Source: Henriciella sp.
GTDB lineage: Bacteria; Pseudomonadota; Alphaproteobacteria; Caulobacterales; Hyphomonadaceae
Direction of reading: 5' to 3'
NCBI GenBank assembly: GCA_027019605.1
Contig: JALUWJ010000214.1
Location: forward strand, 1 to 40,353
DNA length: 40,353 nucleotides
Shown here piece by piece: positions 5,239 through 31,887 of the stretch. Under the pieces are notes generated by a model that did no database searches, was not told the origin of the DNA, and saw only the letters and a list, made by a program, of their open reading frames with translations. The stretch's first letter is position 1, and each line of letters begins with the position of its first letter. A program made the position numbers and the translations under genes.

Positions 5239-5253
5239 ATCGGTGAATCGAAT
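5239..5253. promoter_or_regulatory. Dyad site 1 (ATCGG-N5-CGAAT)
   Basis: The sequence ATCGGTGAATCGAAT is a variant of the recurring ATTCG-N5-CGAAT element. It lies 106 bp upstream of the minus-strand gene at 5133. Confidence 0.5.
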
Positions 5254-5344
5254 AATTCTCGCCGCCAGCGTACGAGCGCCCAGTAGTTCCTGCATCTTCC
5301 AAGATGCTCAATACCAACGGCGAGAAAGTCGTTCCGTGCGGGTG

Positions 5345-5779
5345 CTAATAACGCCCAGAAATGTAACCCCGCATGACTTCAGCTTCGGCTTCAATCTCGT
5401 CGAGCCGATTTTGAATAATATCGCGAATGCTCAATAAGCCGACGAGGCGATCATTGTCCAAAACTGGAATATGCCGAATATGGTGTTTGGCCATCATCGC
5501 CCGAACCAACGCGACTTGATCGTTCGGCGAGCACGTTATGACATCGGTCGTCATCAAATCGGAGACTGTTGCATCGAGAACCTCGTCGCCCATCGTTCGC
5601 AGTCCCCGAACGACATCGCGTTCGGAGATAATGCCGCGCATTGTTGTTCCATCGTCACTGATGATGAGAGCACCGACATCATTTTCTTCAAGACCCTGTA
5701 GAACATCCCTGACGCTCGCATCGGCAGAAATCGTAGGTATGGAGCCACTTTTTTGAACGAGAATACTGTTGACGGACAT
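5345..5779 (-). CDS. CBS-pair domain protein
   Basis: The 144-residue protein is almost entirely a tandem CBS pair. The first CBS motif covers about 10-65 (SVRDVLQGLEENDVGALIISDD, then GIISERDVVRG). The second covers about 78-130 (VSDLMTTDVITCSPNDQVALVRAMMAKHHIRHIPVLDNDRLVGLLSIRDII). Stand-alone CBS pairs bind adenosine nucleotides and regulate partner proteins or sense energy state. There is no other domain, signal peptide or membrane segment. It is divergent from the MscS gene at 6098. The start has a weak ribosome site, and the leader contains an inverted repeat CAGCGGAC/GTCCGCTG at 5807-5841. The partner is not known. Confidence 0.9.
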   Translation of the reverse strand: MSVNSILVQKSGSIPTISADASVRDVLQGLEENDVGALIISDDGTTMRGIISERDVVRGLRTMGDEVLDATVSDLMTTDVITCSPNDQVALVRAMMAKHHIRHIPVLDNDRLVGLLSIRDIIQNRLDEIEAEAEVMRGYISGRY

Positions 5780-6097
5780 GTTGCCGCTCCTATCGAGTTA
5801 AAGAGACAGCGGACGACACACGAAAAGTGGGCCGTCCGCTGGCGCAGCCAGATCGTTTAGCTTCGATCCGCGCGCAGAAGGGGCCTTTGGTAATGGACAA
5901 GGCCGGAGCGTCGATCGCGAATTCTCCCAGGCCAAACCCTCTCGATGAGGCCAATCCGCTTCGACACGATGAAATATAGGTGACGAAGTAAAAGCAGGAT
6001 AACGAATTTAATCGCTTATATCTATCGGATAATCGAATGTGTGGGGGCTTGGTGAATACCCATTGCAGAAATCTGCTCAGCGCGAGAAAAGAGTCCT
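5780..6097. other. Divergent promoter region between CBS and MscS genes
   Basis: No gene is evident in these 318 bases. They hold the leader hairpin at 5807-5841 and the dyad site at 6024-6038, and probably promoters for both flanking genes. Confidence 0.5.
6024..6038. promoter_or_regulatory. Dyad site 2 (ATCGGATAATCGAAT)
   Basis: This 15-mer is identical to the reverse complement of the site at 31873-31887; with one flanking T the match is 16 bp. It lies 60 bp upstream of the MscS start. Confidence 0.6.
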
Positions 6098-8443
6098 ATG
6101 AGTTCGCTACGTTTTGTCTTTGCTGCCGTTTTCCTTTCCGTGCTCGCGCAAGCGATGCTGGTATTTGCTCAAAACACGGTGGATGCGAGTGAATTCGAGC
6201 AACCATTGAGTTTGCAAGCCGACCGAATTGAACAGTTCGACGAGGCGCTGAATTCGAGTGGTTCGGATCTCGATGAGCTTGCGGATGCCATTCGACTGGA
6301 ACGTCCAGAGTATCGAGGCATACTTGATCGCATCGAGCGAGAGGTGTCACTGGCGCAAGAAGAAGTCGACATACTAGCGCCGGATGAAAACGGTGTATCG
6401 ATCGATGAAAATGCCCGGGCATTCGCATTAAGGCGTCTGGCTGCGCTTAGACTGACACAGCGACGGGCGGAGCGTCAGTATGACGAACTCGACCGGCTTC
6501 TCGGCGAGATCTCAAGTGTCCGGCGAAGTCGGCTCATCGGAGAAATCACGCGTCGCGGAGAGTCTGCACTGGCCCCATCGGTATGGACCAATGCTTCAAA
6601 TAAAGCGTCGTCGCGGATATCCGAATTCAACGCGCATCTTTCAGCGTGGGCGTCCGAGCGCAGCGACGCCGAGCGCTATTGGATTGATCTATCGATCATC
6701 ATCACCGCTTTCATCGGTGCTATCATTCTCTTTTGGCCAATTAGAAGCTGGGCGAATGGAACGTTCCTGCATGCCCTGCAAAAACGCCATGCCACGCCAG
6801 TTTCTCGTGCGCTGGGTCTAGTCCTCCGCATCGTTTTCCGTATGGCGCCTGGTGTTCTTGGCGGATTGGTCGTGCTCGAAGCGCTTCGTTATACGGGGTT
6901 TTTGGTCGATGAGGGCGCAGCTGTGGCCCGCGCTCTATGGCACGGCCTGTTGCTGATCTTATTTTCTGAAGCATTCACCACCAGCGTTTTTGCTCCAAAA
7001 CTTGAGAATTGGCGCATCATTCCCGTCTCAACTGAAACCGCGCGCCGGGCTCGAGTTTTCTCGTTGGTAGCTGCCATCGCTTTAGCCATTGATCTCGCGT
7101 TCACCAGCTCTTTAACGCTCGCAGATGCGACCGGCGCGATCCTTCAGGCGGGGCGGGCCATCACGACGCTCATATTACTCGCATTGCTTTTCTTTGCCGG
7201 TAGGGCAGGTGTGTGGTCCTTAAGTCCAACACGCGCACACGAAGTGTCTCAAAGCACCCAGACAACGCTTAGTATTGTGCGCAAGCTGACACGCCCGATC
7301 GCGATCCTTCTGCTCGTCGCATGGCTTGTTGGATATCAGAGCTTCGCCCACTTCTTTACAACTCGCGCGGTCTTGTTCGCGTTCCTTTTGCTCGGAACGT
7401 GGATTTTGCGAGACTCCATTCAGTCTTTGCTCGCTGGGCTCGACAAACAAGCCGCGCGCCGTGCGCAAGGTAGTGACCAAACTGAAGAAACCGTGTTCGG
7501 ATTCTGGGGCGGGGTGCTCGCAGATGGGCTTTTGCTACTCCTTATAGCACCATTGCTTTTACTGATATCTGGGCAAAGCTGGTCAGACGTTCGTGGCATC
7601 ATGTCTGATGCGTTCGAAGGCGTGGACATTGGCGGGATTCGATTCTCGCTCTCCGAAATTCTAGCCGCGGCTTTTGTGTTCGCAGCCGTTCTTGGTGTGA
7701 CGCGCATTATCCAGATCGTTCTGGATCGGCGCCTATTCTCCAACTCTCGCGCAGATCAAGGCTTCAGAAATTCATTTCGTACGCTGCTCGGTTATCTAGG
7801 ACTGATCGTAGCAACTATTATGGCGATAACGGCGATCGGATTGGATTTGTCCAACCTTGCCATCGTTGCAGGTGCCCTCTCCGTTGGGATCGGCTTTGGG
7901 CTGCAGAGCATCGTAAACAACTTCGTTTCAGGTCTTATTCTTCTCTTTGAACGCCCCATCAAAGTCGGCGACTGGATCGTAACTGCGTCAGGAGAGGGGT
8001 TCGTCAAAAAGATCAAAATCAGATCGACTGAGATAGAAACATTCGAGAACGCCGCCATCATCGTTCCAAACTCAGAACTGATTTCGGCGGCTGTCCAAAA
8101 CTGGACGCTTAAAGATAAACGCCGCCGCATCAGCGTCGATGTCGGCGTGCATTATAAGTCTGACCCCAAGCAAGTGCATCAGCTTTTAATGGATGTCGCC
8201 CGCGCAAGCTCCAAGGTCATCGCATATCCCCCACCTTTTGTGCTGTTTAAAGGCTTCGGAGATAGCTCGCTCGATTTTGAAGTGCGCGTCTTTATCGCCA
8301 ATGTCGATGATCGGTTTAACGTTCAAAACGACCTTCGGATCGAAATCTTCTCTGCCTTCTTAGAACACGGAATTGAGATCCCGTTTCCACAGCGCGACAT
8401 TCATATCATTCCTCGTACCGAAAAAGATGTTGAGGACGATTAG
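6098..8443 (+). CDS. Large MscS-family mechanosensitive channel
   Basis: This inner-membrane channel would release solutes when membrane tension rises. A signal peptide (about 1-24) precedes a periplasmic helical region (about 25-190) rich in charged coiled-coil sequence. About ten membrane segments follow. The MscS core is at about 580-760: the pore helix LSNLAIVAGALSVGIGFGLQSIVNNFVSGLILLFERPIKVGDWI with its Gly/Ala pattern, then the beta domain (GEGFVKKIKIRSTEIETFENAAIIVPNSELISAAVQNWT) and the C-terminal alpha/beta domain. At 781 residues it belongs with the larger MscK/YbiO-like proteins with periplasmic extensions. The stop overlaps the start of a small gene at 8443, suggesting coupling. 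It is preceded by a dyad site and is one of two MscS genes in the window. Confidence 0.95.
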   Translation: MSSLRFVFAAVFLSVLAQAMLVFAQNTVDASEFEQPLSLQADRIEQFDEALNSSGSDLDELADAIRLERPEYRGILDRIEREVSLAQEEVDILAPDENGVSIDENARAFALRRLAALRLTQRRAERQYDELDRLLGEISSVRRSRLIGEITRRGESALAPSVWTNASNKASSRISEFNAHLSAWASERSDAERYWIDLSIIITAFIGAIILFWPIRSWANGTFLHALQKRHATPVSRALGLVLRIVFRMAPGVLGGLVVLEALRYTGFLVDEGAAVARALWHGLLLILFSEAFTTSVFAPKLENWRIIPVSTETARRARVFSLVAAIALAIDLAFTSSLTLADATGAILQAGRAITTLILLALLFFAGRAGVWSLSPTRAHEVSQSTQTTLSIVRKLTRPIAILLLVAWLVGYQSFAHFFTTRAVLFAFLLLGTWILRDSIQSLLAGLDKQAARRAQGSDQTEETVFGFWGGVLADGLLLLLIAPLLLLISGQSWSDVRGIMSDAFEGVDIGGIRFSLSEILAAAFVFAAVLGVTRIIQIVLDRRLFSNSRADQGFRNSFRTLLGYLGLIVATIMAITAIGLDLSNLAIVAGALSVGIGFGLQSIVNNFVSGLILLFERPIKVGDWIVTASGEGFVKKIKIRSTEIETFENAAIIVPNSELISAAVQNWTLKDKRRRISVDVGVHYKSDPKQVHQLLMDVARASSKVIAYPPPFVLFKGFGDSSLDFEVRVFIANVDDRFNVQNDLRIEIFSAFLEHGIEIPFPQRDIHIIPRTEKDVEDD

Positions 8444-8619
8444 TGACGTTTTGGACGATCAGCTTTTTGATTACTCGTTTTATCCTGGTCATCGAACATA
8501 GCGTCAGACAGTATCGAAAAACCTGTCGCCAAGCGTTTCAGGGCAATGATGAGGCGGTGCGCGAAGCGTGTGAATATCTGGTCCATACTGACCAGATAAG
8601 ATCTCTTTTAATATCGTAA
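8443..8619 (+). CDS. Small hypothetical protein, coupled to MscS gene
   Basis: A GTG start overlaps the MscS stop codon by one base, and the frame runs for 58 residues. The N-terminus (FWTISFLITRFILVIEHSV) could be a membrane segment; the rest is a charged helix (CRQAFQGNDEAVREACEYLV). The overlap and amphipathic composition support a real coupled gene, but I see no family. It might be a small accessory subunit. It could also be chance. Confidence 0.4.
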   Translation: MTFWTISFLITRFILVIEHSVRQYRKTCRQAFQGNDEAVREACEYLVHTDQIRSLLIS

Positions 8620-8657
8620 TAGCGAATTTGTTTCGACCTTATGATCGGAAAACGCGA

Positions 8658-9536
8658 TTACTCGGCCCAGAATGGGGCTTCCAAATCACCTTTTTGATAT
8701 TCGTTCGTGACCTCATAAAGCAGATCTAGAGCCTGTTCGTAGACCTCACTGGCCGTATCGGTTTGGTAAGCGACGTAAAGTGGGTATGGAAAGATAGGGG
8801 CATCCTTCGCCTCGTATAAATAGCCCTCTTCCAAGTGAGGCGTGACCAGACGGCGTGGCATATACCCCGCAGCATTTGCACTAATCAAAAACGGTGCCCC
8901 GAAAAATCCAAGACCAACCGTCGTTCGCACGGCCAGATAATCAGGTAATTTGTGAGAATGCTGTTCGTGAAACGCAGGCCCCCAATCAACGTACATGTAG
9001 CGATCTTCAAACCCGCGATCCGGATCCGTCGTGACCAAAATGAGCTCGTCATCCATCAAATGTTTGACTTCAATATCGGCTCTCAGCCTCGGTTGGTGCA
9101 TCACGGCAATATCGATTAATCCTTCCGACAGACGGTGCGACAATGCCAGAGGTGTTCCGACCTCAGCGCGGAAGGCAACACGCGGCAATTCTGATCTTAA
9201 GCTGATCAGCCACTGCGTCAGTAGCTGGCTCCAAAGGCTGTATTGTCCACCAATAACGAGTATCTCATCAAACCGATCGGGAACGCCCGCCTGGTGTTTT
9301 CCCTGTTCCCACGCACGCACCATCGCCCGTGCATACCGTTCAAAGTGATGACCAGCCGAGGTGAGCCGCGCCCCAGACTTGGAACGCTCGAACACGATTT
9401 GACCGAGCCTTTCTTCCAAGTTCTTAATTCTCATGCTCACCGTAGACTGTGTGACGTGGACTTTCTTCGACGCCTCGAAAAACGTCCCGGTTTCGATAAC
9501 CGCTAGAAATGTACGGGCGACTTCAACATCAATCAT
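8658..9536 (-). CDS. LysR-family transcriptional regulator
   Basis: The 292-residue protein has an N-terminal winged helix-turn-helix (about 3-60: VEVARTFLAVIETGTFFEASKKVHVTQSTVSMRIKNLEERLG with FERSKSGARLTSAG). A periplasmic-binding-like effector domain follows (about 90-290). Length and domain order are normal. The ligand is not predictable. A dyad site, ATTCG-N5-GTGAA, lies 30 bp upstream of its start. The fuller consensus ATTCG-N5-CGAAT has the T-N11-A spacing that LysR proteins bind, so it may regulate itself and the surrounding cassette. Its 3' end faces the small gene at 8443-8619. Confidence 0.93.
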   Translation of the reverse strand: MIDVEVARTFLAVIETGTFFEASKKVHVTQSTVSMRIKNLEERLGQIVFERSKSGARLTSAGHHFERYARAMVRAWEQGKHQAGVPDRFDEILVIGGQYSLWSQLLTQWLISLRSELPRVAFRAEVGTPLALSHRLSEGLIDIAVMHQPRLRADIEVKHLMDDELILVTTDPDRGFEDRYMYVDWGPAFHEQHSHKLPDYLAVRTTVGLGFFGAPFLISANAAGYMPRRLVTPHLEEGYLYEAKDAPIFPYPLYVAYQTDTASEVYEQALDLLYEVTNEYQKGDLEAPFWAE

Positions 9537-9565
9537 TTGTATTTCCGATCTAAACCATCAAAACT

Positions 9566-9580
9566 ATTCGCTTTTGTGAA
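9566..9580. promoter_or_regulatory. Dyad site 3 (ATTCG-N5-GTGAA)
   Basis: The left half-site is exact and the right half is degenerate. It lies 30 bp upstream of the LysR start, where autoregulation would act. Confidence 0.45.
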
Positions 9581-9599
9581 CTATTAGTCTGGTCATAAT

Positions 9600-9784
9600 G
9601 AGCTGGCAAGCCGAGCCCCTTTTCGGTGAGCCATTAGTGTGCACCCGGCCTTCACGTCTCCCCGAAAATTGCAACGTGAAGCGCCTGGTTGCTGGGTGAG
9701 GCTAGGTCCTCACTGGATCGTGCCAATAAACCCGGCCCGGGACTGTACTTAAGTCCCGGGCTCCATCTCCCATGAGGCCTTCAC
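9600..9784 (+). promoter_or_regulatory. Structured leader of mgtE, candidate Mg2+-responsive RNA
   Basis: The 185-nt leader can form three stem-loops: TTCACGT/ACGTGAA (9651-9657 with 9674-9680), GTGAGG/CCTCAC (9696-9701 with 9708-9713), and a 10-bp stem GCCCGGGACT/AGTCCCGGGC (9735-9744 with 9752-9761) with a 7-nt loop. The last stem ends 23 bases before the mgtE start and has no U tract. Magnesium transporter genes often carry riboswitch leaders. The segment CTGGGTGAGGCTAGG recalls the M-box opening, but the rest of that motif is not recognisable. Confidence 0.45.
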
Positions 9785-11164
9785 ATGACCGCGCTCGCTG
9801 AACAACAGGACGAACGAACCGAAATCGAGCTCATCGAATCGCTCACTCAGCTCATCGAAACTGAAGCTCAGGAAAAAATTACGTCGCTTTTGAGCGCTAT
9901 GCCCGAAGCGGATGCGCGCCACCTCTTGTTTCGCCTAGAGCAAGATCAATTACGCCAAGTCATCGCGCTCGCAGCACCTGAAACAATCAGCGACATTATC
10001 GAGCCCCTTCCTGATGTCGAAATCGCGATGCTGCTGGAGGATATTGAGCCAACCCGCGCTGCGGAGATTTTGGCCGGTTTCACCGCGGCCGATCAAGCGC
10101 ATATTCTGGATGAACTCGGCTCGGAAGATGCTGCCGCGGTTACAGCGGCCATCGATATCGAGGTCGCCGAAGATATCTCGCGCCTCCAAGCCTATCCTGA
10201 AAATTCAGCTGGATGGCTGATGAACCCGTCGCCTTTGGTGTTCAGCGCATCTGAAACAATAGGGGACGTGCTAAAACGCATCGTCGAAGACGAGAACGCA
10301 CTCGATCACGCCGAAGGTCAGCATCCTTATGTCATAGACGCAGAAGGGCGATTGATCGGATTTGTAAGCTTGCAAACGCTACTGACCGCCAAGCGGTCCA
10401 CCACGCTCGATGAAGCGTCGAAAATTGCAGTATCTGTTTCCGATAACGCCTCATTGGATGACCTTAGAGACTTTTTTGACGAGCATGATTTCCTCGGCGC
10501 TGCCATCACCAATGAGAACGGCATTCTGGTCGGTGCGATTTCAAAAGATACAGCAATGGAGGCGGTTCGCGACCGATTGCAATCGAATGCGCAAAAAGCA
10601 CGGGGCGTTGTGGAAGACGAACTTCGTACCATGCCGCTCCTCTTTAGATCGCGTCGCCGCCTTTCATGGCTCAGCGCCAACATCTTTTTAAACGTCATTG
10701 CGGCGAGCGTTATCTCGGCATTTGAACCGACGCTCGCTGCCGTGATCGCGCTCGCGGTTTTCTTACCCATGGTGTCCGACATGAGTGGCTGCTCTGGCAA
10801 CCAAGCCGTTGCGGTGTCCATGCGAGAAATCTCGCTCGGTCTCGCACGGCCAAACGACATATTTCGCGTTTGGCGAAAAGAGGTCATGGTTGGTCTTATC
10901 AACGGCGTCATTCTAGGGGCAATTATCGGTCTCGTTGTCTTTATATGGAAAGGCAACGTGGTGCTCGGCGGTGTCATCGGAACAGCGCTCGCCATCAATA
11001 CCGTTATCGCCGTCTCAATCGGCGGCTGCGTTCCGCTCCTTCTGAAACGGTTCAATGTCGATCCTGCGGTCGCCTCCGGGCCATTGCTGACGACCATCAC
11101 CGATATGGCTGGGTTCTTTCTCGTGCTCGGCCTGGCGACCCTGACTCTGCCTTGGTTGATATAA
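9785..11164 (+). CDS. mgtE: Magnesium transporter MgtE
   Basis: MgtE is a Mg2+-gated Mg2+ channel of the inner membrane. The 459-residue protein has the acidic MgtE N domain (about 30-130, with repeats such as LLEDIEPTRAAEILAGF), a CBS pair (about 140-255), a connecting helix and five membrane segments (about 300-459). The pore region shows FLPMVSDMSGCSGNQAVAV and DPAVASGPLLTTITDMAGFF, which fit the family. The pore motif MSGCSGNQA differs from the more usual MGGNVGTQ, so selectivity may differ. A structured leader precedes it. A small membrane protein gene follows after 18 bp, and an MscS gene after a terminator. Confidence 0.95.
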   Translation: MTALAEQQDERTEIELIESLTQLIETEAQEKITSLLSAMPEADARHLLFRLEQDQLRQVIALAAPETISDIIEPLPDVEIAMLLEDIEPTRAAEILAGFTAADQAHILDELGSEDAAAVTAAIDIEVAEDISRLQAYPENSAGWLMNPSPLVFSASETIGDVLKRIVEDENALDHAEGQHPYVIDAEGRLIGFVSLQTLLTAKRSTTLDEASKIAVSVSDNASLDDLRDFFDEHDFLGAAITNENGILVGAISKDTAMEAVRDRLQSNAQKARGVVEDELRTMPLLFRSRRRLSWLSANIFLNVIAASVISAFEPTLAAVIALAVFLPMVSDMSGCSGNQAVAVSMREISLGLARPNDIFRVWRKEVMVGLINGVILGAIIGLVVFIWKGNVVLGGVIGTALAINTVIAVSIGGCVPLLLKRFNVDPAVASGPLLTTITDMAGFFLVLGLATLTLPWLI

Positions 11165-11182
11165 AAATGGGAGGAAAAAAGG

Positions 11183-11368
11183 GTGAAACCAGAAAAACAA
11201 CAAGGACCGGGCCATCGTCTATTGGGCTATTGCCGCGACGCGCTGCTTATCGCCTTTGCAACAGGTATTCTTGCGCTACTTGCATTAACCTCTGAGACGA
11301 ACAGGAACGCAGATTCAGGGGCACTGGATCGTGCAGAGATTGGCTCGGATTGCGATTGCCCTTGTTAG
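11183..11368 (+). CDS. Small single-pass membrane protein
   Basis: The frame begins with GTG and has GGGAGGA upstream at good spacing, 18 bp after the mgtE stop. The 61 residues include one membrane segment at about 20-36 (ALLIAFATGILALLALT) and a C-terminal CDCPC cluster that could bind metal. It ends shortly before a terminator, so it is probably the last gene of the mgtE unit. I know no family. Confidence 0.5.
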   Translation: MKPEKQQGPGHRLLGYCRDALLIAFATGILALLALTSETNRNADSGALDRAEIGSDCDCPC

Positions 11369-11389
11369 AAAATAAGATCACTAAATCAA

Positions 11390-11409
11390 ACCGGAACCCG
11401 GTGTTTTTT
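11390..11409 (+). terminator. Intrinsic terminator after mgtE unit
   Basis: A short ACCGG-AAC-CCGGT hairpin at 11390-11402 is followed by six T residues (11404-11409). Confidence 0.6.
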
Positions 11410-11437
11410 ATCCAAACTTGCATAAAGGCGTGGGCGA

Positions 11438-12559
11438 TTGAGCTTCTTGAATAAAATTCCATTCGAAATAGGGACGCTTCCAGAGTGGCTTCAACCCCTC
11501 GCTGGACCTAGCTGGCCATGGTTGATGCTCGTCTTGCTTTTGACCCTAGCACTGATGATCTCGGTCTTTGCCAAACGCTTGGTAAGATCCTTGGCTCGGC
11601 GTAGATACGCTGATGAAAAGGCATTTGAAGGATCTGGCTGGGACCTTGCAGCGCCCGTTGTCCAATTGGTCGTTTTCGCCGCCGGCGCATTGCTCGCCGC
11701 AGACCTGACCGCAGTTTACGATACAAATAGACTAGATGCGATTTGGACGGGCGCGCTCATTAGCCTCGCCATTATTGCGGCTGCCGTTATGTTCTCAACT
11801 TGGATGGTGCGCTCCATGCGTTCCTTCGCGGCTAAGGCGCATGGTCATGGTCGTCGCAAAGTCGATGATACGGTCTTCATATTTGTCGGCTCCATGTTGC
11901 GCTATGCGATTTTTGCTGTCGCATTCTTGCTTGTGCTCGGTCAGTTCGGTTTTCAAACCGCCTCCCTCGTCGCTCTGGTCGGTGCGATTGGTCTTGCCCT
12001 CGCGCTCGCCCTCCAGGACACGCTAAAAGCAGTTGCGGCAGGCGTAATGCTAGCTGTCTTTAGACCTTTTAGGATCGGCGATTTTGTTGGGATCGCGAGC
12101 CAAGAAGGCGAAGTTCACGATATCACCCCGTTCGTGACCTCGATTAAACAAGTCGACAATAAAGTCATTTCGATTGCTAATGATCAGGTTTGGACTGAGC
12201 CAATCGTAAATCACACTCGAGATTCACGCCGCCGCCTCGATCTCTATTTCAATCTCGCATTTGAAGATGATGTCGAAACTGCGCTGAGCGCTTTGATAGA
12301 CGCGGCGCATGAATGCAGCGCCGTGATCACGCGTGACGAGACATGGTCTGGTGTCCACACAATGGCCGATTGGTGCATAAAGCTACGACTGCGTGCATGG
12401 GTGAGAACTGAAGACTTCGTGCAGGCCCGGTCAGATGTAACCAGATTGGTGCTGTCCAAATTCAAAGAGCGCGGTCTCTCAATTCCTTATCCAGCGCAAG
12501 TCGAATATCAGGTGCACAACCACAAATTTGGAACGCCGGGAGGGTCCGAAAATGACTAA
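11438..12559 (+). CDS. Small MscS-family mechanosensitive channel
   Basis: The 373-residue protein has an N-terminal membrane segment at about 28-46, further segments at about 70-90, 100-122 and 150-168, and the MscS pore helix at about 172-205 (QTASLVALVGAIGLALALALQDTLKAVAAGVMLAVFRPFRIGDFV). The beta domain and C-terminal alpha/beta domain follow. It is a compact MscS-type osmotic release channel. The start is TTG at 11438 with a weak AAGGCG upstream; no better ATG lies nearby. It is followed after 26 bp by the MscS-like gene at 12586, so the two are probably co-transcribed and may form mixed complexes. Confidence 0.93.
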   Translation: MSFLNKIPFEIGTLPEWLQPLAGPSWPWLMLVLLLTLALMISVFAKRLVRSLARRRYADEKAFEGSGWDLAAPVVQLVVFAAGALLAADLTAVYDTNRLDAIWTGALISLAIIAAAVMFSTWMVRSMRSFAAKAHGHGRRKVDDTVFIFVGSMLRYAIFAVAFLLVLGQFGFQTASLVALVGAIGLALALALQDTLKAVAAGVMLAVFRPFRIGDFVGIASQEGEVHDITPFVTSIKQVDNKVISIANDQVWTEPIVNHTRDSRRRLDLYFNLAFEDDVETALSALIDAAHECSAVITRDETWSGVHTMADWCIKLRLRAWVRTEDFVQARSDVTRLVLSKFKERGLSIPYPAQVEYQVHNHKFGTPGGSEND

Positions 12560-12585
12560 GCTGTCACCTTCCGTGGACATGCGGC

Positions 12586-13515
12586 GTGCCAATCGCTTTT
12601 AGCCCTTTTTTTCCGCCGCTCCTCTTAGCTGCGGCATGGATAGCTGCCGCCACACTTTTTGCGAGACGCTTAAAGCCCCGTGTTTTCTGGATCCATCTGA
12701 TGGTCTGTGGCGGTGCTATACTGTCCACTCTCATTCTCTTTGTTTGGCCAGCTGGATTAGCGTTTGGCGATCGTATTGCCCTCGAAATGTCGGCACTTAT
12801 CATCGCGTTTACCTGCGCCATCGCGGACCTGGTCTTAGTAACTCGGAGAACTTGGCGTCATGAAGTCAGTCTCTCCTCCGAGTTTCATCTCCTTGCTGCA
12901 AGGCTCATGGTTTGGGCCTGCTTTCTTATCTCGCTCATGATCAAAGTTGACCCCACGCTCCAAGCTTTAACCTGGTTTCTTGCCGGTTTAATTGTTTTGG
13001 TCGTTGGCGCGCTCTCGCCATTCCTAACCGGAGCACTTCAAGCCGAGCGACTAAAGTCCAATTTCGGCTACAAAGTCGATGACTGGGTCATCGTGCGAGA
13101 CAATGCCTACAAGCTCAATTCAATGAGGCGTTTTCAATGGGAGTTAGAAGGACCTTCGAAAGAAAAATTGAGCCTTGCGACGCGGACGATTTACCAACTT
13201 TTTCGGCGTTCAAACCTGTCGAAACCGTTTTCTCGAGTCCAACAATCTTTTTTTGTCGCATACTCAGAAGACGCTGAAACCGCGGTCGAGGCGCTTAACG
13301 CTAAGCTCGCTCAAATAGACTATCTCCATCTTTGCAATAATTTGGGCGTGGTAGTAGCGGGAGATCTCGAGCACGCGCTTGAAGTCCAGCTGAGCGCCTT
13401 GGTCGTCGCCATCGATGTCAAAAGAACTGAAAGTCTATTTAGAGACGAACTACGCCGCGTTTTTGATCAGTTCGGGGTCGAACTCTCAGATCAAACACCT
13501 GTCACATACCATTAG
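12586..13515 (+). CDS. Degenerate MscS-like membrane protein
   Basis: The 309-residue protein has four or five membrane segments in residues 1-155, then KVDDWVIV, which resembles the PFKVGDWV turn after the MscS pore helix. Its C-terminus (QQSFFVAYSEDAETAVEALNAKL onward) resembles the MscS alpha/beta domain. The Gly/Ala-patterned pore helix is missing, so it may not conduct by itself. The start is GTG at 12586. It follows the MscS gene at 11438 by 26 bp and may be an accessory or regulatory subunit. The distant MscS relation is inference; structure prediction would settle it. Confidence 0.6.
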   Translation: MPIAFSPFFPPLLLAAAWIAAATLFARRLKPRVFWIHLMVCGGAILSTLILFVWPAGLAFGDRIALEMSALIIAFTCAIADLVLVTRRTWRHEVSLSSEFHLLAARLMVWACFLISLMIKVDPTLQALTWFLAGLIVLVVGALSPFLTGALQAERLKSNFGYKVDDWVIVRDNAYKLNSMRRFQWELEGPSKEKLSLATRTIYQLFRRSNLSKPFSRVQQSFFVAYSEDAETAVEALNAKLAQIDYLHLCNNLGVVVAGDLEHALEVQLSALVVAIDVKRTESLFRDELRRVFDQFGVELSDQTPVTYH

Positions 13516-13541
13516 TATTTTGAATTCAAACGTTCAAATAA

Positions 13542-13556
13542 ATTCGTTTTTCGAAT
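13542..13556. promoter_or_regulatory. Dyad site 4 (perfect ATTCG-N5-CGAAT)
   Basis: A perfect inverted repeat with a TTTTT centre, 101 bp upstream of the CNNM/CorC-type gene. Confidence 0.6.
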
Positions 13557-13656
13557 GCTTCTATAAACTGCTACCTAACCCTGACTCGCGCGTCGATACG
13601 CATGAGCTACAATCGAATTTCCAATACCTACAAAGCTAACAGAAAAGAGATCGCAT

Positions 13657-14988: not shown

Positions 14989-15440
14989 GCGAGACATCCC
15001 GGATTGATACAAGCCTTGTTATCTCGGCTTCGCCCTCTCGCGTCTGGAAAGTATTGACCGATTTCGCACGGCTGGACCATTGGTCTAGTCTCTATCGTGG
15101 GATCGAGTGGCCGCCGCTGATGGAAGTCGGCGAACAATTTCGCTTCCAACTCGCACTGTTTCAGAAGAGTGCTCAGGCCGAAACCGCTCAATTGGAACGC
15201 TACGATCCGCCTGTGCGGTTAGTTTGGAGTTCGCAAGGAACGCTTGCTCTGGTGAAAACAGATATAACACTGTCTCAGCATGGATGTGATCAAACCAAGC
15301 TGCGGCACGCGATCGAACTTACGAGCCGCAACGACGCTGAAGCGGTTGCAACAGGCTTTAATAAGGAAATTGCCGCTCGGCTCGATCATTTTAACCGTGC
15401 CCTTGCCGAGGAAGTCTTGCATCGTAGCATGGGAAATTAG
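14985..15440 (+). CDS. SRPBCC/START-like ligand-binding protein
   Basis: The 151 residues start with RIDTSLVISASPSRVWKVLTDFARLDHWSSLYRGIEWPP, the typical beginning of SRPBCC (Bet v 1-like) polyketide-cyclase/dehydrase proteins. A long C-terminal helix is at about 125-148. These proteins bind hydrophobic ligands or lipids; the ligand here is unknown. The start overlaps the CNNM stop by ATGA, so the two products are made together and may act together at the membrane. Confidence 0.85.
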   Translation: MSETSRIDTSLVISASPSRVWKVLTDFARLDHWSSLYRGIEWPPLMEVGEQFRFQLALFQKSAQAETAQLERYDPPVRLVWSSQGTLALVKTDITLSQHGCDQTKLRHAIELTSRNDAEAVATGFNKEIAARLDHFNRALAEEVLHRSMGN

Positions 15441-15462
15441 GCGCCTTGGACCCAATGAGCAA

Positions 15463-15493: not shown

Positions 15494-15514
15494 CCTTTTG
15501 AGTGCGTAGGCCGT

Positions 15515-16072: not shown

Positions 16073-16138
16073 TTCTGACCTCCTTTACGAAGACGCGCCT
16101 AAACTGACTTGTCTAGATTGATCTGAAAAACGAAATTA

Positions 16139-17657: not shown

Positions 17658-17718
17658 GCGTCTACCGGACGCCCAGCGCCCCTAATAATCGCAATAACCG
17701 ATAGTAAGCATGCGATAA

Positions 17719-17733
17719 AAGCGTTTTTCAAAT
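17719..17733. promoter_or_regulatory. Dyad site 7 (AAGCG-N5-CAAAT)
   Basis: A degenerate copy that shares the TTTTT centre and the following GCTT with the site at 13542. It lies 49 bp upstream of the lipoprotein start. Confidence 0.4.
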
Positions 17734-20079: not shown

Positions 20080-20173
20080 TGCAGGTCCGTTTGTATTAGG
20101 GATTGTTTGAATATCGACCACCCGGTTATCACGGAGAATAAGAACTGAATATCGAAACAATCTGCTGTTTAAT

Positions 20174-20188
20174 ATTCGAATAGCGAAT
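20174..20188. promoter_or_regulatory. Dyad site 8 (perfect ATTCG-N5-CGAAT)
   Basis: A perfect inverted repeat with centre AATAG, 95 bp upstream of the PurD-like gene. Confidence 0.6.
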
Positions 20189-20370
20189 AGACTGGTTTCG
20201 ATGGAACGCGCCCGGATGAAACTAATATTAATCAATAATATCAGTTGCTTGTGTGCTGATTGGATGCGAGTGGAAACGCATCGAAGCGTGACGGCCTATA
20301 AAATTACATAAAATTTAGATTTAGGGCGAATTGACGAAAGTGAGATCGCGCATCACATCGTGATTTGGCG

Positions 20371-20397
20371 TTAGCAGTCGCCGGCCAAGAGTGCCAA
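20371..20397. promoter_or_regulatory. CIRCE operator (HrcA site) of groESL copy 1
   Basis: TTAGCAGTC-N9-GAGTGCCAA matches the CIRCE consensus TTAGCACTC-N9-GAGTGCTAA with one change in each half and the correct spacer. It is 76 bp upstream of groES, where HrcA repression would act. Confidence 0.85.
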
Positions 20398-22449: not shown

Positions 22450-22460
22450 CTACCAAAACG

Positions 22461-22490
22461 TGCCGCGCCCGAATGATTTGAGGCGCGGCA
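22461..22490 (+). terminator. Terminator after groESL copy 1
   Basis: TGCCGCGCC and GGCGCGGCA form a perfect 9-bp stem 11 bp after the groEL stop. No long T run follows. Confidence 0.6.
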
Positions 22491-22604
22491 TCCATTCACT
22501 TCGCAGCATATATAACATCGAAAGACCCGAAACGGACTGTAGAGCTTGTACAATCATATGCGTTCAGCGATTGTGAATGAACAACCCAGGGCACACGCTT
22601 ATCC

Positions 22605-23600: not shown

Positions 23601-23647
23601 CGAGCGACGCTTACAAAGCATGATCGCACAGCGAATGAGGAAGAGGC

Positions 23648-24565
23648 ATGAAAGGCGGTATCAACTCATACATATTGGCCAAAGAATCTCTGACCTCAGA
23701 AGAGCTTCATTCCGGCATCGTGACGGCGAAATCCGGTTTTGATCCATCCCACGCCTCGACGGACGAGATTAAATCGCTGTTTCGGGAAGGAGAGTATGCC
23801 TACTCCGATCGCCTTCCCCTGGACGACTATTTTGCCCAAATGTATGCGCTCCAAGTCGAGCTTGTGAAATTGCAGAACTGGGTGAAGTCTTCCGGCGAGA
23901 AAATCGTAATCCTATTTGAAGGGCGCGATGCAGCCGGCAAAGGCGGGACCATTAAAAGGTTTGTCGAGAACCTTAATCCGCGCGGTGCGCGCGTGGTCGC
24001 GCTCTTCAAACCGACCAGTGAAGAAAGACAACAATGGTACTTTCAACGCTATGTCGATCACTTACCGACCGCTGGTGAAATCGTACTTTTTGATCGCTCC
24101 TGGTACAACCGTGCGGGCGTCGAGCGGGTTATGGGATATTGTTCGGAGGAAGAGTATTGGAGCTTCATTGAGCAAGTGCCCGATTTTGAGAAAATGCTTA
24201 TCAAAAGCGGGATTCACCTCTTTAAACTCTACCTTTCTGTCAGCAAAACCGAGCAGGCACGCAGGTTACATGAGCGCTCCATCAGCCCGCTGCATGCATG
24301 GAAATTAAGTCCCGTTGATACCGAAGCACAGGCGCGATGGGACGAATATAGTGTGGCTAAAGAAGATACGTTCACGCGAACCAATACCAACCTCTCACCC
24401 TGGATAATCGTGAAAGCAGAGGACAAGCTCAGGACCCGGCTGAACGCGATCCGGGCCGTGCTCAGCCAAATCGATTATGCAGGCAAAGACGAAACCGTCG
24501 CCTGCAAACCAGATCCACTGATCGTGGCCCGCGCTGCTGATATCATTGCAATGGATGCAAGTTAG
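23648..24565 (+). CDS. ppk2: Polyphosphate kinase 2 family enzyme
   Basis: PPK2 moves phosphate between polyphosphate and nucleotides. The 305 residues contain Walker A in EGRDAAGKGGTIKRF (about 92-106), the following NPRGARVVAL, Walker B with the catalytic Asp in VLFDRSWYNRAGVERVMGYC (about 150-170), and the lid FKLYLSVSKTEQARRLHER. It is a single-domain PPK2; I cannot tell whether it favours ADP or GDP. The start has AGGAAGAGGC upstream. Polyphosphate also acts as a chaperone and phosphate reserve, which fits the location beside groESL. Confidence 0.95.
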   Translation: MKGGINSYILAKESLTSEELHSGIVTAKSGFDPSHASTDEIKSLFREGEYAYSDRLPLDDYFAQMYALQVELVKLQNWVKSSGEKIVILFEGRDAAGKGGTIKRFVENLNPRGARVVALFKPTSEERQQWYFQRYVDHLPTAGEIVLFDRSWYNRAGVERVMGYCSEEEYWSFIEQVPDFEKMLIKSGIHLFKLYLSVSKTEQARRLHERSISPLHAWKLSPVDTEAQARWDEYSVAKEDTFTRTNTNLSPWIIVKAEDKLRTRLNAIRAVLSQIDYAGKDETVACKPDPLIVARAADIIAMDAS

Positions 24566-24632
24566 GGTAATTTTGGCTCTCTCGACTAGCTCTATTCAGG
24601 TGGAATCGCCCAGACTCAATAGGCACGCATCT

Positions 24633-24678
24633 ATTCGAATCTCAAATATATAATCGCAATATAATTCGCTATGCGAAC
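24633..24678. promoter_or_regulatory. Dyad sites 9 and 10
   Basis: ATTCG-N5-CAAAT (24633-24647) and ATTCG-N5-CGAAC (24664-24678) start 31 bp apart, three helical turns. They lie upstream of the LapA-like gene at 24838. Confidence 0.5.
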
Positions 24679-25107: not shown

Positions 25108-25263
25108 ATGAGTGGACTGAAGAAAAGCGGGCCTGATCAAAAACGGGCGCTCAAAAAACCAGCATTCGAGATCGGACAAGTCGCGCTGCCAAAACCTTAT
25201 CGCCCTCATCGCAGATTCAGATACTTCGATGAGTACAAGGCGCTTGATGAGTTCTGCGATTAG
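25108..25263 (+). CDS. 51-residue MSGLKK-family microprotein, copy 2
   Basis: The product is MSGLKKSGP followed by a Lys-rich segment, a central hydrophobic patch (FEIGQVALPKPY), then RRFRYFDEYKALDEFCD. It has exactly the length (51 residues) and layout of the protein at 4978-5133: shared start MSGLKK-GP, RRF, DEY and DEF-D. The start has GAAGGAAA upstream. The two copies are divergent in the middle, so conservation of both ends probably reflects function. It lies directly after a LapA-like gene. I know no described family. Confidence 0.7.
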   Translation: MSGLKKSGPDQKRALKKPAFEIGQVALPKPYRPHRRFRYFDEYKALDEFCD

Positions 25264-25384: not shown

Positions 25385-25399
25385 CTCGGATAATCAAAT
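25385..25399. promoter_or_regulatory. Dyad site 11 (CTCGG-N5-CAAAT)
   Basis: This variant has the ATAAT centre of the sites at 6024 and 31873. It overlaps the proposed start codon of the DUF389 gene, so binding would block that gene directly. Confidence 0.4.
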
Positions 25400-27020
25400 G
25401 CCTTTCTCCGCTTTCAATACGACGGCAGATACAACGCGCCGTAAGCTTCGTCTCGGAATCAAACAGCTTGCTCGCCGCGTGAACCACGAGGACGTGGTCG
25501 AACACGTTCGCGAAGAAGGACAATTGTCCGGCCGCTATATCTTCATGACCGTGATGTCCTGCGCCATCGCGATGCTGGGACTGCTCTTGTCGTCCCCAGC
25601 TGTGATCATCGGCGCAATGTTGATTTCCCCGCTTATGGGGCCGATTATGCTGATGGGCTTTTCGCTCAGCATTCTCGAACTCAAATCCCTCCGCCAGGCG
25701 GTCTTCTCCATGTTTTGCGGCGTGCTTGCAGCGCTCGCGATCTCGATTGCCATCGTGAAACTCTCGCCTTTGACCGAGGCGACTTCAGAGATTCTGGCGC
25801 GCACGCGGCCGAACTTTTTCGATCTTCTGGTCGCTGTATTCTCTGGACTGGCGGGCGGATATGCGGTGATCCACCGCAAAGGCGAAACAATTGTCGGCGT
25901 CGCGATCGCAACGGCATTGATGCCGCCGCTCGCCGTAACTGGCTACGGAATTGCTGTTGGATCTTGGCCAGTTGCGTCAGGCGCTTTTTTCCTCTTCATG
26001 ACCAACTTGCTGGCGATTGCATTATCTGTAACAGTCCTGTCTCGCATCTATGGGTTCGGCGCAGAGCATAGCCCAAAACACACAATCTGGCAGTCTGGAT
26101 TGATCTTTCTCGTCTTTGGCGCGCTGTCTTTGCCGCTCGGTATTGCCTTGCGTGATATCGCATTTGAAGCCTCATCGAGCGCGACCATCCGCGCCCAGCT
26201 TTTAGGGCCATTTCCAGAGAACCAAGCCCGTATTGGTGACTTTGCAGTCGCGTTTCCTCGAGAAGGGGCCATTCGGGTTGATGCAACGATTTTGACGACG
26301 TCACGCGTGCCAGACGCTGAGCAAAGAATGCAGAGCGATCTATCAGAAAAAGTGGGCCGCATGGTCGAGCTCAATCTCGATCAAGTCATCGTTGATGCAG
26401 ACGAAAACCAACGCAATGCCGAACTGTTGCAAATGGCAGAAAGCTCATTGGCCGCGCCGCTGCGAGCAGAAATTTCTCGCGTCGAGAACTTAGCGCTAGC
26501 TCAGCGAAGCGAACGCGAAATTCGAAATGCCGTTTCGTTTCCGCTGGCCGGGGCCGATATCGACGCAGACACTAACAAAGCAACCTTCTTTGCTGCGCCC
26601 AATTCCTCCTTTTCAATCGCAGCTTACCGCGCCATCGAAGCGGGGATCGCAACCAATTTTCCCGAATGGCAGGTATGGGTTGTGCCGCCTGTGCAAGAAT
26701 TGCCGCTGATCGTTTTTGAAGAAGGCGGCGAAACGCTGAATGATGCGGCCTTACGCACGCTTGATGACAGCCTTTGGGCGCTTGAACATTGGGGCGTGTC
26801 CCAAGTTGAGGTGGTGGGATATGCCTCCACCGCTGGCGCGCTGCAACGCTTCAACAATCAAGCCCTCGCCTTTAGGCGGGCAGATGCAGTGGCTCAGCGC
26901 CTTCTCCAAGAAGGCATAGACGCGCAGCCGGTTGGAGAGTATCGGGCATTCAGACAAGAAGAAGAAGAACGCGTGCTCGGCTATCAGCGGTTCCAAACTG
27001 TGCTGATCAGACCCTTCTGA
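25398..27020 (+). CDS. DUF389 membrane protein fused to an OmpA-like domain
   Basis: The 540-residue protein begins with a short cytoplasmic part, then about six membrane segments (about 48-265). These carry the DUF389 hallmarks RYIFMTVMSCAIAMLGLLLSSPAVIIGAMLISPLMGPI and IATALMPPLAVTGYGIA. A long extramembrane region follows, and residues about 440-535 (TLDDSLWALEHWGVSQVEVVGYASTAG, then NNQALAFRRADAVAQRLLQEGI) resemble an OmpA/MotB peptidoglycan-binding domain. DUF389 proteins are unknown transporters or sensors. The fusion could tie the membrane part to the cell wall. No clear ribosome site precedes the ATG at 25398, so the start is uncertain. Confidence 0.8.
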   Translation: MPFSAFNTTADTTRRKLRLGIKQLARRVNHEDVVEHVREEGQLSGRYIFMTVMSCAIAMLGLLLSSPAVIIGAMLISPLMGPIMLMGFSLSILELKSLRQAVFSMFCGVLAALAISIAIVKLSPLTEATSEILARTRPNFFDLLVAVFSGLAGGYAVIHRKGETIVGVAIATALMPPLAVTGYGIAVGSWPVASGAFFLFMTNLLAIALSVTVLSRIYGFGAEHSPKHTIWQSGLIFLVFGALSLPLGIALRDIAFEASSSATIRAQLLGPFPENQARIGDFAVAFPREGAIRVDATILTTSRVPDAEQRMQSDLSEKVGRMVELNLDQVIVDADENQRNAELLQMAESSLAAPLRAEISRVENLALAQRSEREIRNAVSFPLAGADIDADTNKATFFAAPNSSFSIAAYRAIEAGIATNFPEWQVWVVPPVQELPLIVFEEGGETLNDAALRTLDDSLWALEHWGVSQVEVVGYASTAGALQRFNNQALAFRRADAVAQRLLQEGIDAQPVGEYRAFRQEEEERVLGYQRFQTVLIRPF

Positions 27021-29339: not shown

Positions 29340-30731
29340 TTATTGAGCGCGCAGCGCATCTTTCTGTTTGGACAGAGGACGTACCCGCGACTCCAAGAAT
29401 TGATAAATCTGATCGGCGACATCAATGCCGGTTGATTTTTCGATACCCTCTAGCCCTGGCGAAGAGTTCACTTCCAGAACCTTTGGGCCAGTTTCCGATT
29501 GCAGAAGATCAACCCCTGCGATCTTTAACCCGAGAACGCGCGCCGCTTTTCTTGCCGTCTCCCGTTCGACCTTACTGAGTTTTACCGGCTCAGCCGTGCC
29601 GCCCCGGTGAAGATTGGATCTAAACTCGCCTTCCGCCGCGCGGCGGCGCATCGCCCCGACCACGCGGTTCCCAATCAAAAAACAGCGCACATCTGCGCCT
29701 GCCGCTTCGGCCACAAACTGCTGGACCAGAAAGTTTGCATCCAGACCCCGAAAAGCATCCACAAGACTCTCAGCCGCCTTTTTCGTTTCAGCCAAAACGA
29801 CACCGCGTCCTTGCGTCGACTCCAAGAGCTTCACCACCAAAGGCGCCCCGCCTGTGAGATTGATCAAGTCTTTGGTGTCTTTAGGCGAGCTCGCAAAAGC
29901 TGTTAGCGGCATGCCGATTTGTGCGTCTGACAAAAGTTGATGGGCCAGAAGTTTATCTCGGCTGGCAATGATACCGTTCGCTGAGTTGAGGCAGTATGCG
30001 CCAGTGCTCGAAAATTGCCTCAGGACAGCTGTGCCATACGCGGTGATTGAGGCTCCGATCCGCGGGATGACGGCATCATAATAGGGCAAGACATTGCCAT
30101 CATAATGAACCTCAGGCCGGATCCCGCCGATGCGCATGTAGCAACGGCGTGTGTCGATCACCTCGATAACATGACCGCGGGCTTCGCCGGCTTCGACCAA
30201 ACGCTTTGAAGAATAAGAGTTCGGCTCGCGAGAGAGCAATGCAATGCGCAGCGGCCGACGAACAGGCTTGCGCTTTGGCAGCGCTTTATAGGCATCATAA
30301 CTCAGGACGGGCTGGACAAATGATCCATTGGGATCGACCACCATGTCGTCGCCAATCGCTTGGCGGCCCAAGAGCATGCGATAAGCCATATTCTCGCGGT
30401 TCGAGAGCGTGATTTGAATTGGCCAGGACTTCTCGCCAACGCGCGCAATGGTCTCAATCACAAACCGAAGCTCGGTTTCACCGTTTGAGCTCGTAACTTC
30501 GCGGCGATCGACCACGCGCGCCGAGCAAGTGAGCTCTAAATTAGGGTTTTGCGGGTCGGGCTGAATCAAAAAGCGAACTTGCGGATTATTGGCCGGGCCA
30601 AATGGTTCGATTTCGACAGCATGGAGCGCAGATGTTTTCGCGCCTGTGTCTACTTTCGCTTTAATCGCAGGCAATCCGAGGTCGGAGAGGTCTACCCATT
30701 CCTCCCACCCAAGCTTAAACAGATCCGACAT
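29340..30731 (-). CDS. RimB-RimK fusion: ATP-dependent zinc protease-like plus glutamate ligase
   Basis: The 463-residue protein joins two domains. Residues about 1-150 are the retropepsin-like RimB/ATP-dependent zinc protease family ([35 protein letters not shown]). Residues about 160-450 are a RimK-type ATP-grasp ligase ([84 protein letters not shown]). RimK adds glutamates to ribosomal protein S6 and RimB counteracts or regulates this. The fusion places both activities in one chain. It lies in a minus-strand operon with the MFS gene and converges on the AstE-like gene. Confidence 0.93.
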
Positions 30732-31364: not shown

Positions 31365-31451
31365 AGTATCGTAGAATTCCCGTGTTACGCGAATTGCACC
31401 TAAGGTGTGCTGGTTAGGTCCGGCGATACGAGCGTTAACGCGTCGAGTTGG

Positions 31452-31784
31452 TTACTGACCATTCAACGGTTTGGTTGGGGCTGTCTTCGATAGCTCGGGC
31501 GGGACAATCGGATCGAAGTTACAGTCCAAATCAAAGTTCCGGTCTTCGTCGGACCGTTCTAAAACGTGCTTGTGGCCTCTGCCGTGAGCGCCAAAGGGCC
31601 ATGAAGGTTTGTTTCGCGCCGATGGTCGAGCTGGCACTACATCGAACGGGTCTTTCTCGGCAATAAATGCCTCGATCGATTCAATCAGAGACCGAGCCGC
31701 GGACTTCGCGCCGAGATTTGCTCGATTATCGCGCTCATCTGTAAATTTTTGTGCTGAATTAGGAGACGTAGGGTCAATAGACAT
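31452..31784 (-). CDS. Hypothetical soluble protein
   Basis: I do not recognise this 110-residue protein. It starts MSIDPTSPNSAQKFTDERDN and has one helical segment (about 25-45, AKSAARSLIESIEAFIAEKDP). The rest is low in hydrophobic residues, rich in Pro, Asp and Arg, and probably disordered. I chose the ATG at 31784, which has GGAAATTGG upstream; in-frame starts exist up to 31820. A dyad site identical to the one at 6024 lies 89 bp upstream, so it is probably expressed with the cassette. Confidence 0.55.
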   Translation of the reverse strand: MSIDPTSPNSAQKFTDERDNRANLGAKSAARSLIESIEAFIAEKDPFDVVPARPSARNKPSWPFGAHGRGHKHVLERSDEDRNFDLDCNFDPIVPPELSKTAPTKPLNGQ

Positions 31785-31872
31785 TTTGCCAATTTCCATA
31801 AATGCAAAACAGATGAGCATAGAAATGCCCTAAGACCTTCAATTTGACGAACGAATTTTTCGGCAAGTATCT

Positions 31873-31887
31873 ATTCGATTATCCGAT
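31873..31887. promoter_or_regulatory. Dyad site 12 (ATTCGATTATCCGAT)
   Basis: The exact reverse complement of the 15-mer at 6024-6038. It lies between divergent genes, 89 bp from the start at 31784 and 163 bp from the start at 32050. Confidence 0.6.

What the first reader, a model, noticed from the sequence alone, without database searches (positions are those of the whole stretch)
5239..31887. A shared 15-bp dyad upstream of most units in the cassette
ATTCG-N5-CGAAT is perfect at 13542 and 20174. Near copies lie at 5239, 6024, 9566, 16139, 16152, 17719, 24633, 24664, 25385 and 31873. The 15-mers at 6024 and 31873 are identical in opposite orientation. Nearly all lie 30-165 bp upstream of a gene start: MscS, LysR, CNNM, the PurD-like gene, lipoproteins, the LapA-like gene, the DUF389 gene, and 31452/32050. 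A perfect 10-base pattern is expected about 0.04 times in 40 kb with equal base use. The pattern implies a dedicated regulon for the whole island.
Basis: seen in the sequence. Interest (0 to 1): 0.85.

Follow-up and report, generated by a model that had tools for sequence, protein, structure and literature searches.

The report
LysR switch wired across stress island
A likely mobile bacterial DNA island carries its own LysR-type gene switch and about eleven copies of the matching DNA landing site in front of its stress and ion-balance genes, so much of the island can probably be turned on together.

Summary
The motif is real, but its unit is not the 15-mer. Single 15-mers with up to 2 mismatches are not enriched (33 found, 35 expected). 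The unit is a ~42-bp operator: two dyads about 31 bp apart. The same operator stands directly upstream of homologues of the island's own LysR gene (8658-9536) in other genomes. A matrix trained only on 11 such regions finds 9 window sites (>=12 bits) against 0.6 expected from 263 kb of the same genome. An outside-trained profile gives 4 matches in 3.37 Mb, 3 of them here. A profile that includes the window sites gives 13, all on two contigs that each carry a LysR of this family. Read in one direction the sites fit LysR promoter geometry, and 10 of 11 lead to a gene start. So: an HdfR-like LysR with an island-restricted regulon of about ten units. It is not the whole island: both GroESL copies, DUF389 and DegP lack the operator, and the MscS and DUF389 assignments are probably wrong. 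Two of the eleven sites rest on window-trained models only. Binding and signal are untested.

The parts
8658..9536 (-). LysR-type regulator (HdfR-like), proposed to bind all operators below
   Evidence: Pfam HTH_1 and LysR_substrate; nearest NCBIfam HdfR, 105.7 bits, below its cutoff of 240; homologues in other genomes carry the operator directly upstream
5214..5255 (-). operator, target to the left: 51-aa MSGLKKKGP protein
   Evidence: 20.9 bits with outside-trained matrix; leave-one-out above all control positions; only E 2.0 with profile R1
4978..5133 (-). 51-aa microprotein MSGLKKKGP...; paralogues at 25108-25260 and L042 15852-15998
5999..6040 (-). operator; geometry points left to CBS-domain gene 5345-5779 (217-nt leader); MscS 6098 lies on the other side
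   Evidence: 33.8 bits; R1 match in the whole genome, E 0.088
8619..8660 (-). operator at the 3' end of LysR, perhaps orphaned; similar place to the operator between LysR and lipoprotein-like gene in L034
   Evidence: 14.9 bits; R1 E 8.5e-4 in the window; no gene start with a ribosome site found
9533..9574 (+). operator between LysR and MgtE 9785-11164; distal dyad at the LysR start, promoter geometry reads into MgtE (208-nt leader)
   Evidence: 14.7 bits; best R1 match of the whole genome, E 8.1e-4
13509..13550 (+). operator upstream of CNNM 13657-14988
   Evidence: 20.4 bits; R1 E 0.010 in the whole genome
16127..16168 (-). operator upstream of 185-aa protein 15515-16072 (signal-like start, judged by eye)
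   Evidence: 22.7 bits; R1 E 0.18 in the window; ribosome site and ATG at 16072
   Evidence: 13.9 bits; R1 E 0.23 in the window; GGAGGAGA and ATG
17686..17728 (+). operator upstream of lipoprotein-like gene 17782-18165; homologue in L034 also has one
   Evidence: 14.7 bits; R1 E 0.033 in the window
20148..20190 (-). operator upstream of PurD-like ATP-grasp gene (18775 to about 20076)
   Evidence: leave-one-out 17.0, R2 E 0.009; not found by the outside-trained models, so weaker
   Evidence: leave-one-out 23.9, R2 E 0.002; only 6.5-6.8 bits with the outside-trained matrix
31848..31890 (-). operator upstream of 31452-31820 and the following GNAT, RimK and MFS genes on the same strand
   Evidence: 12.0 bits; same layout as L042 11568/11599
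20371..20397 (+). CIRCE-like site of the first GroESL operon: other regulation
   Evidence: 2 mismatches, 0 expected

Best explanation
The dyads are halves of a ~42-bp operator for the island's own LysR-type regulator (8658-9536). A LysR tetramer binds two dyads three helical turns apart: the distal one centred near -65 (recognition site), the proximal one against the -35 box (activation site). In relatives the regulator typically has one operator at its own start, facing a divergent neighbour; in this island the operator also stands in front of about ten cargo units (small proteins, CBS protein, MgtE, CNNM, lipoprotein-like genes, PurD-like gene, LapA-like gene, the 31.8-kb operon), giving an island-restricted regulon, with a LysR paralogue and further, weaker operators on a second island of the same genome. 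Shown by computation: the operator, where it lies, its tie to the LysR genes, and promoter-like geometry. Inferred: binding, activation, and the inducing signal (by cargo, ionic or envelope stress).
For: Conserved two-dyad stretch directly upstream of 12 of 13 LysR genes with at least 41.9% identity to the window's (in the 13th, L034, a copy lies between LysR and the lipoprotein-like gene). Matrix from 11 of these, no window letters: 9 window sites at >=12 bits, 4 in 262,621 control bases, 0.61 expected; 100 Markov shuffles of the window: mean 1.14, largest 4. Profile R1 from 19 outside sequences: 4 matches in the whole genome at E<=10, 3 here, the fourth inside a coding ORF. R2, trained with the window sites: 11 of 13 genome-wide matches here, 2 on the second LysR contig. 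All 11 sites, each left out of training in turn, score above every control position. Exact 31-bp pairing. A -10-like hexamer near the place that -65 centring predicts: 3.35 of 6 matches over 17 sites, random 99.9th percentile 2.65. Gene starts downstream in the predicted direction for 10 of 11. A Ruegeria plasmid LysR (46%), not used in training, has the operator at its start and CBS and CorA genes nearby. Microprotein paralogues: two of three sit directly behind an operator, the third behind one with the LapA-like gene between.
Against: No binding or expression data. Two sites (20148, 24631) are not recovered by the outside-trained models. With R1 run without filters on the window, only 5 sites have E below 0.05. 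Site 8619-8660 has no clear target. With the stricter two-block matrix two of the nine sites (13.0 and 10.4) do not exceed the control's top score of 14.0. In the 11 relatives the best -10-like match lies at another offset (49-51, 3.64), the one near 66 is second (3.27), and the random sample was mostly coding DNA. A generic sigma-70 scan of 4001-23900 shows no excess (16 found, 16.4 expected). A short IUPAC core with 3 mismatches is only mildly enriched (13, 5.9 expected). G093 has an R1 match (E 2.1e-4) with no LysR within its 3-kb locus. LysRs on Jannaschia, Phaeobacter and Aminobacter plasmids (38-39%) show no operator beside them. L036, with similar cargo, has only the operator at LysR itself above 21 bits.
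Confidence: 0.83

Rival explanations
1. The operator belongs to another regulator (a chromosomal transcription factor or alternative sigma factor) that controls the LysR gene and the cargo alike.
For: The sites overlap putative promoters and LysR genes are among the neighbouring genes; no binding shown; G093 has a match without a nearby LysR.
Against: Of 41 genomes scanned with R1, matches at E<=1e-3 occur only in G000, G098 and G102, which have a LysR hit, and in G093 (G098 and G102 gave training sequences, so their presence is by construction, the absence in 37 others is not). In the own genome the operator is confined to the two LysR contigs. Two-dyad, -65, T-N11-A geometry is that described for LysR-type regulators (PMC4834489, PMC8407307, passages).
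Confidence: 0.11
2. Chance: AT-rich intergenic dyads picked out by eye.
For: Single 15-mers with up to 2 mismatches are at the chance level.
Against: Outside-trained matrix and profile recover most sites; exact 31-bp pairing.
Confidence: 0.02
3. The sites are relics of duplicated DNA (copied with cargo or by a small mobile repeat) and few of them still work.
For: Site 8619-8660 seems orphaned; three sites share a 23-nt stretch that runs a few bases beyond the dyad (13538-13560, 16148-16170, 17715-17737); the island has two integrases.
Against: Otherwise similarity lies in the operator positions that are also conserved at LysR genes, while flanks differ (by eye); a gene start follows for 10 of 11 and a -10-like hexamer is kept near the same distance.
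Confidence: 0.04

Closest known systems
LysR-type regulator operators (recognition site T-N11-A near -65 plus activation site at -35)
   Same: Dyads of T-N11-A type, distal one near -65, proximal one at the -35, regulator gene start next to the distal dyad in relatives
   Different: Both dyads are recognisable in sequence, and about eleven copies lie within 27 kb of one island
HdfR (Enterobacteria)
   Same: Best NCBIfam model, residues 2-259 (105.7 bits); third-best PDB sequence match (6wn5, after NtcB and OxyR)
   Different: Far below the HdfR cutoff of 240 bits; in the passages I read, HdfR is a poorly known activator of the Salmonella std operon (PMC6173445)
[quoted passage not shown]
   Same: Likely mobile island of stress genes with extra chaperone and protease copies (DegP-like here, Hsp20 on the second island)
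   Different: No Clp disaggregase, FtsH or HdeD among the 37 window ORFs scanned with Pfam; ion channels, Mg transporters and GroESL dominate; here a LysR with many operators, while tLST is described with a promoter upstream of a Mer-like orf1 (PMC8290217, passages)

Membership tests
LysR-type operator | interrupted dyad with T-N11-A (or T-N10-A) | tested here: met
   ATTCG-N5-CGAAT contains T-N11-A; relatives' second dyads are ATCG-N7-CGA(A/T)T or, in L057, ATCG with one base less
LysR-type operator | second site about three turns away, next to the -35 | tested here: met
   31-bp pairing; -10-like hexamer near the predicted distance in window and other sites; in the 11 relatives that offset is only second best
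LysR-type operator | operator at the regulator gene's own start region in relatives | tested here: met
   12 of 13 LysR genes of at least 41.9% identity
LysR-type operator | binding by the regulator | not testable with these tools
   needs EMSA, footprint or DAP-seq
LysR-type protein | HTH_1 plus LysR substrate-binding domain | tested here: met
   HTH_1 4.8e-18; LysR_substrate 1.7e-12, matched over residues 93-169 only
HdfR equivalog | score above NCBIfam cutoff | tested here: not met
   105.7 bits, cutoff 240
tLST | sHsp20, ClpK/ClpG, YfdX, HdeD, Trx, KefB, DegP gene set | tested here: not met
   of 37 window ORFs scanned with Pfam only the DegP-like 36795-38240 fits
CIRCE/HrcA control | TTAGCACTC-N9-GAGTGCTAA (recalled consensus) upstream of groES | tested here: met
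   20371-20397, 2 mismatches; only the first GroESL has one at up to 3 mismatches

The most novel reading that the evidence does not exclude
A portable regulon: an HdfR-like LysR gene travels on islands and plasmids of Alphaproteobacteria with its operator, and each island wires its own set of ion, envelope and chaperone genes to it. In this genome two such islands, each with its own LysR paralogue and the same class of operator, may be cross-wired into one stress response, with a family of ~50-aa MSG(L/I)KK(K/S)GP microproteins as a core output.
Probability: 0.45. Interest if true: 0.65.

Novelty: new member of a known kind. Interest (0 to 1): 0.52.

Why it matters
Stress islands are mostly described by their cargo; how a newly arrived island is switched on is seldom worked out (my general impression, not searched for). 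Here sequence alone gives a candidate regulator, its operator to the base, about ten targets with predicted promoters, and built-in controls (island genes without the operator, a second island with a paralogue). That makes the question directly testable and ties several genes of unknown function, including microproteins, to one response.

Tried and rejected
The 15-mer as the unit: rejected, not enriched. NhaR as the regulator, a guess from cargo: not supported, it is not among the 25 of 49 NCBIfam matches shown, and HdfR is the best. Site 25385: rejected, 4 mismatches, no paired dyad, overlaps the start codon. R1 hit C150:34274: inside a coding ORF, taken as chance. Search of genome contigs with the LysR: 14 loci, only distant LysRs of 23-37%. 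Literature: 8 searches of the open-licence PMC library (several listings were cut, e.g. 15 of 36); no listed title or abstract start describes this island or operator. Of papers I read only passages of four. Not done: tree of the LysR family, structure prediction, follow-up of the weaker operator matches away from LysR loci in G331, G126, G033 and others, gene content around the G093 match. With the all-site matrix three more window positions (16177-, 25246-, 31912-) score 14.0-15.2, no higher than the control's top of 15.6, and were left out.
Full report
What was claimed. A 15-bp dyad ATTCG-N5-CGAAT, perfect twice and near-perfect ten times, upstream of most units of a cassette, taken as a regulon for the whole island.

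Check of the letters. The two perfect copies exist (2 found, 0.16 expected). The near copies, as a class with up to two mismatches, are at chance (33 against 35.1). So the claim as stated is weak. But near copies occur in pairs exactly 31 bp apart: 13511/13542, 16121/16152, 24633/24664, 31842/31873 (4 of the 14 pairs found over spacings of 12 to 119 bp, on average 0.13 per spacing). This was seen after the fact; it suggested a two-dyad operator, and ATTCG-N5-CGAAT holds T-N11-A, the LysR box.

The island's LysR. The window encodes one LysR-type protein among the ORFs scanned (8658-9536). Homologues were sought in 150 relatives (10 genomes with E up to 1e-20, own genome included), in 398 genomes of the order (18 at E up to 1e-50, own included) and in 385 of the class (2 at E up to 1e-75, own included): it is sporadic. 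Of 24 LysR genes whose upstream DNA was read, 13 are at least 41.9% identical to the window's; 12 of these 13 have, ending within about 20 bases of the start codon, a two-dyad stretch, in 11 of them (C)AAACGAATATAAT(T/C)G-N8-ATCG-N6/7-CGA(A/T)T with variations. The twelfth, L042 from this genome, has the window's ATTCG form and was recognised by its layout; it does not reach 11 bits with the matrix. In the thirteenth (L034, the closest at 76-77%) a copy lies between LysR and the lipoprotein-like gene that follows. Of the 11 more distant ones (33-39%), 10 have a match of at least 11 bits within about 700 bases of the LysR gene, L063 has none.

Independent test. A matrix was built from those 11 upstream regions, none from this genome. 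In the window it finds 9 sites at 12 bits or more: 5997+, 16125+, 5213+, 13552-, 8617+, 17730-, 9576-, 16384+, 31846+. The control, 262,621 bases in 39 contigs or contig parts of the same genome, has 4, which is 0.61 per window; at 14 bits 7 against 0.15, at 10 bits 10 against 1.7, at 8 bits 16 against 2.9, at 6 bits 29 against 6.3. Markov shuffles of the window give 1.14 on average and 4 at most in 100. All nine lie at least 84% outside genes of my gene list, from which doubtful ORFs had been dropped. A second form with less freedom ranks the same nine sites first, from 32.1 down to 10.4; seven of them exceed the control's top of 14.0, the last two (13.0 and 10.4) do not. A profile (R1) of 19 sequences from other genomes, 8 of them picked by matrix score, run over the whole genome of 3.37 Mb, gives four matches at E up to 10: 9540-9574, 13517-13551 and 6000-6036 of this window and one inside a coding ORF on C150 (150 of 949 first-look candidates were scored). 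On the window alone and without filters R1 gives 36 matches at E up to 10, five below 0.05: 9540, 13517, 8620, 6000 and 17687.

Full set. Adding 20148-20190 and 24631-24672 gives 11 window operators. With each left out of training in turn, every one scores above every position of the control. The two added sites rest on that test and on R2: the outside-trained matrix gives the 24.6-kb site only 6.5-6.8 bits and does not show the 20.1-kb one among its top 30. A profile with all sites (R2) finds 13 matches in the genome, 11 here (one partial, E 5) and 2 on contig C140 (E 0.003 and 8; 150 of 604 candidates scored). The window hits and the stronger C140 hit are there by construction; the absence elsewhere is the informative part.

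Geometry. Written in the direction in which relatives' divergent genes are read, each operator runs distal dyad, about 31 bp, proximal dyad, often a -35-like TTGNNN or TTTTTC (by eye), about 17 bp, a -10-like hexamer, and a gene start. The -10 match at the offset that puts the distal dyad near -65 averages 3.35 of 6 over 17 sites (11 window, 6 others), the highest of all offsets tried, and 3.09 over the 11 relatives, where another offset (49-51) is higher at 3.64; random own-genome samples, mostly coding, average 1.89 with a 99.9th percentile of 2.65. A generic sigma-70 scan shows no excess in 4001-23900. The arrangement is the one described for LysR-type regulators (PMC4834489 and PMC8407307, passages). 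Targets in this direction: 51-aa protein (5133), CBS gene (5779), MgtE (9785), CNNM (13657), 185-aa protein (16072), 44-aa membrane-type peptide (16338), lipoprotein-like gene (17782), PurD-like gene (GTG at 20121 or ATG at about 20076), LapA-like gene plus microprotein (24838, 25108), and 31820 with the GNAT, RimK and MFS genes behind it. Leaders range from tens of bases to 217. Site 8619-8660 has only a 48-aa ORF without a ribosome site; its place behind LysR resembles that of the L034 operator in front of the lipoprotein-like gene, so it may be a relic (inference).

Second island and relatives. Own contig C140 (L042) has a LysR paralogue (42%), GroEL, CorA, TerC, a PRK-like protein, MscS, Hsp20, CBS and TauE. 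R2 finds one strong operator there (11576, 20.0 bits, used in training, upstream of a 120-aa gene that heads the GroEL-CorA-MscS run) and four weak ones within 4.2 kb (7.4-10.0 bits, E 0.11-0.76); the other 35.6 kb of C140 gave one partial match. With R1 these weak ones hardly show (E 1.4-7.6 or not at all). Three of the four lead to Hsp20, a PAS_5 gene and a third copy of the MSG(L/I)KK microprotein; the fourth (13405) leads to nothing clear. A Ruegeria plasmid LysR (46%), not used in training, has the operator at its start (26.3 bits with R2, 13.7 with the matrix) and CBS, CorA, DNA starvation protection and DUF2254 genes in the neighbourhood; it is the only R2 match at E up to 3 on 205 kb. 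Against wider generality: L036, with LysR, MgtE, DUF389, MscS, CorA and CNNM, has only the operator at LysR as a clear site; three plasmid LysRs of 38-39% have none beside them; G093 has a match without LysR within 3 kb.

What is not covered. GroESL (20474-22449), CorA, PPK2, DUF389-AspA, the second GroESL and DegP have no operator, and none points at the exchanger at 32038. The first GroESL has a CIRCE-like site at 20371. So the regulon covers about ten units, not the island as a whole.

Organism.

Verdict. It is a new member of a known kind (LysR regulon), unusual in operator number and density on one island among the LysR loci seen here. Binding, direction of control and signal remain to be shown.

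Noticed in passing
window 165-200 and 2520-2581: 5' and 3' parts that look like two halves of one tRNA-Leu (by eye), split by 2.3 kb that carries an intact tRNA-Leu(CAA) at 481-566; integrase 2688-3944 lies beside the 3' part
   Followed up: no
window 20474-22449 and 34112-36288: Two GroES-GroEL pairs in opposite orientation, 77% alike over 1644 nt; a third GroEL on the second island (L042 9485-11113)
   Followed up: partly
window 4978-5133, 25108-25260; L042 15852-15998: Microprotein family MSG(L/I)KK(K/S)GP with acidic, aromatic tail, 35-39% identical; not searched in family libraries
   Followed up: partly
window 25398-27020 and 29340-30731: Fusions: DUF389 with an OmpA domain, and a RimK ATP-grasp with a Zn_protease domain
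   Followed up: no
window 18775-20076: PurD-like ATP-grasp protein scoring 111 bits against the purD cutoff of 288, so perhaps not a purine enzyme
   Followed up: no
window 1-90 and 40310-40353: Both contig ends look like pieces of an insertion-sequence transposase (read by eye), perhaps why the contig ends there
   Followed up: no
L061, L064, L065, L066, L068: More distant LysR genes have two facing operator matches, one on each side of the gene
   Followed up: no
window 33272-33895: Second, short phage integrase (207 aa) inside the cassette, perhaps marking a nested element
   Followed up: no
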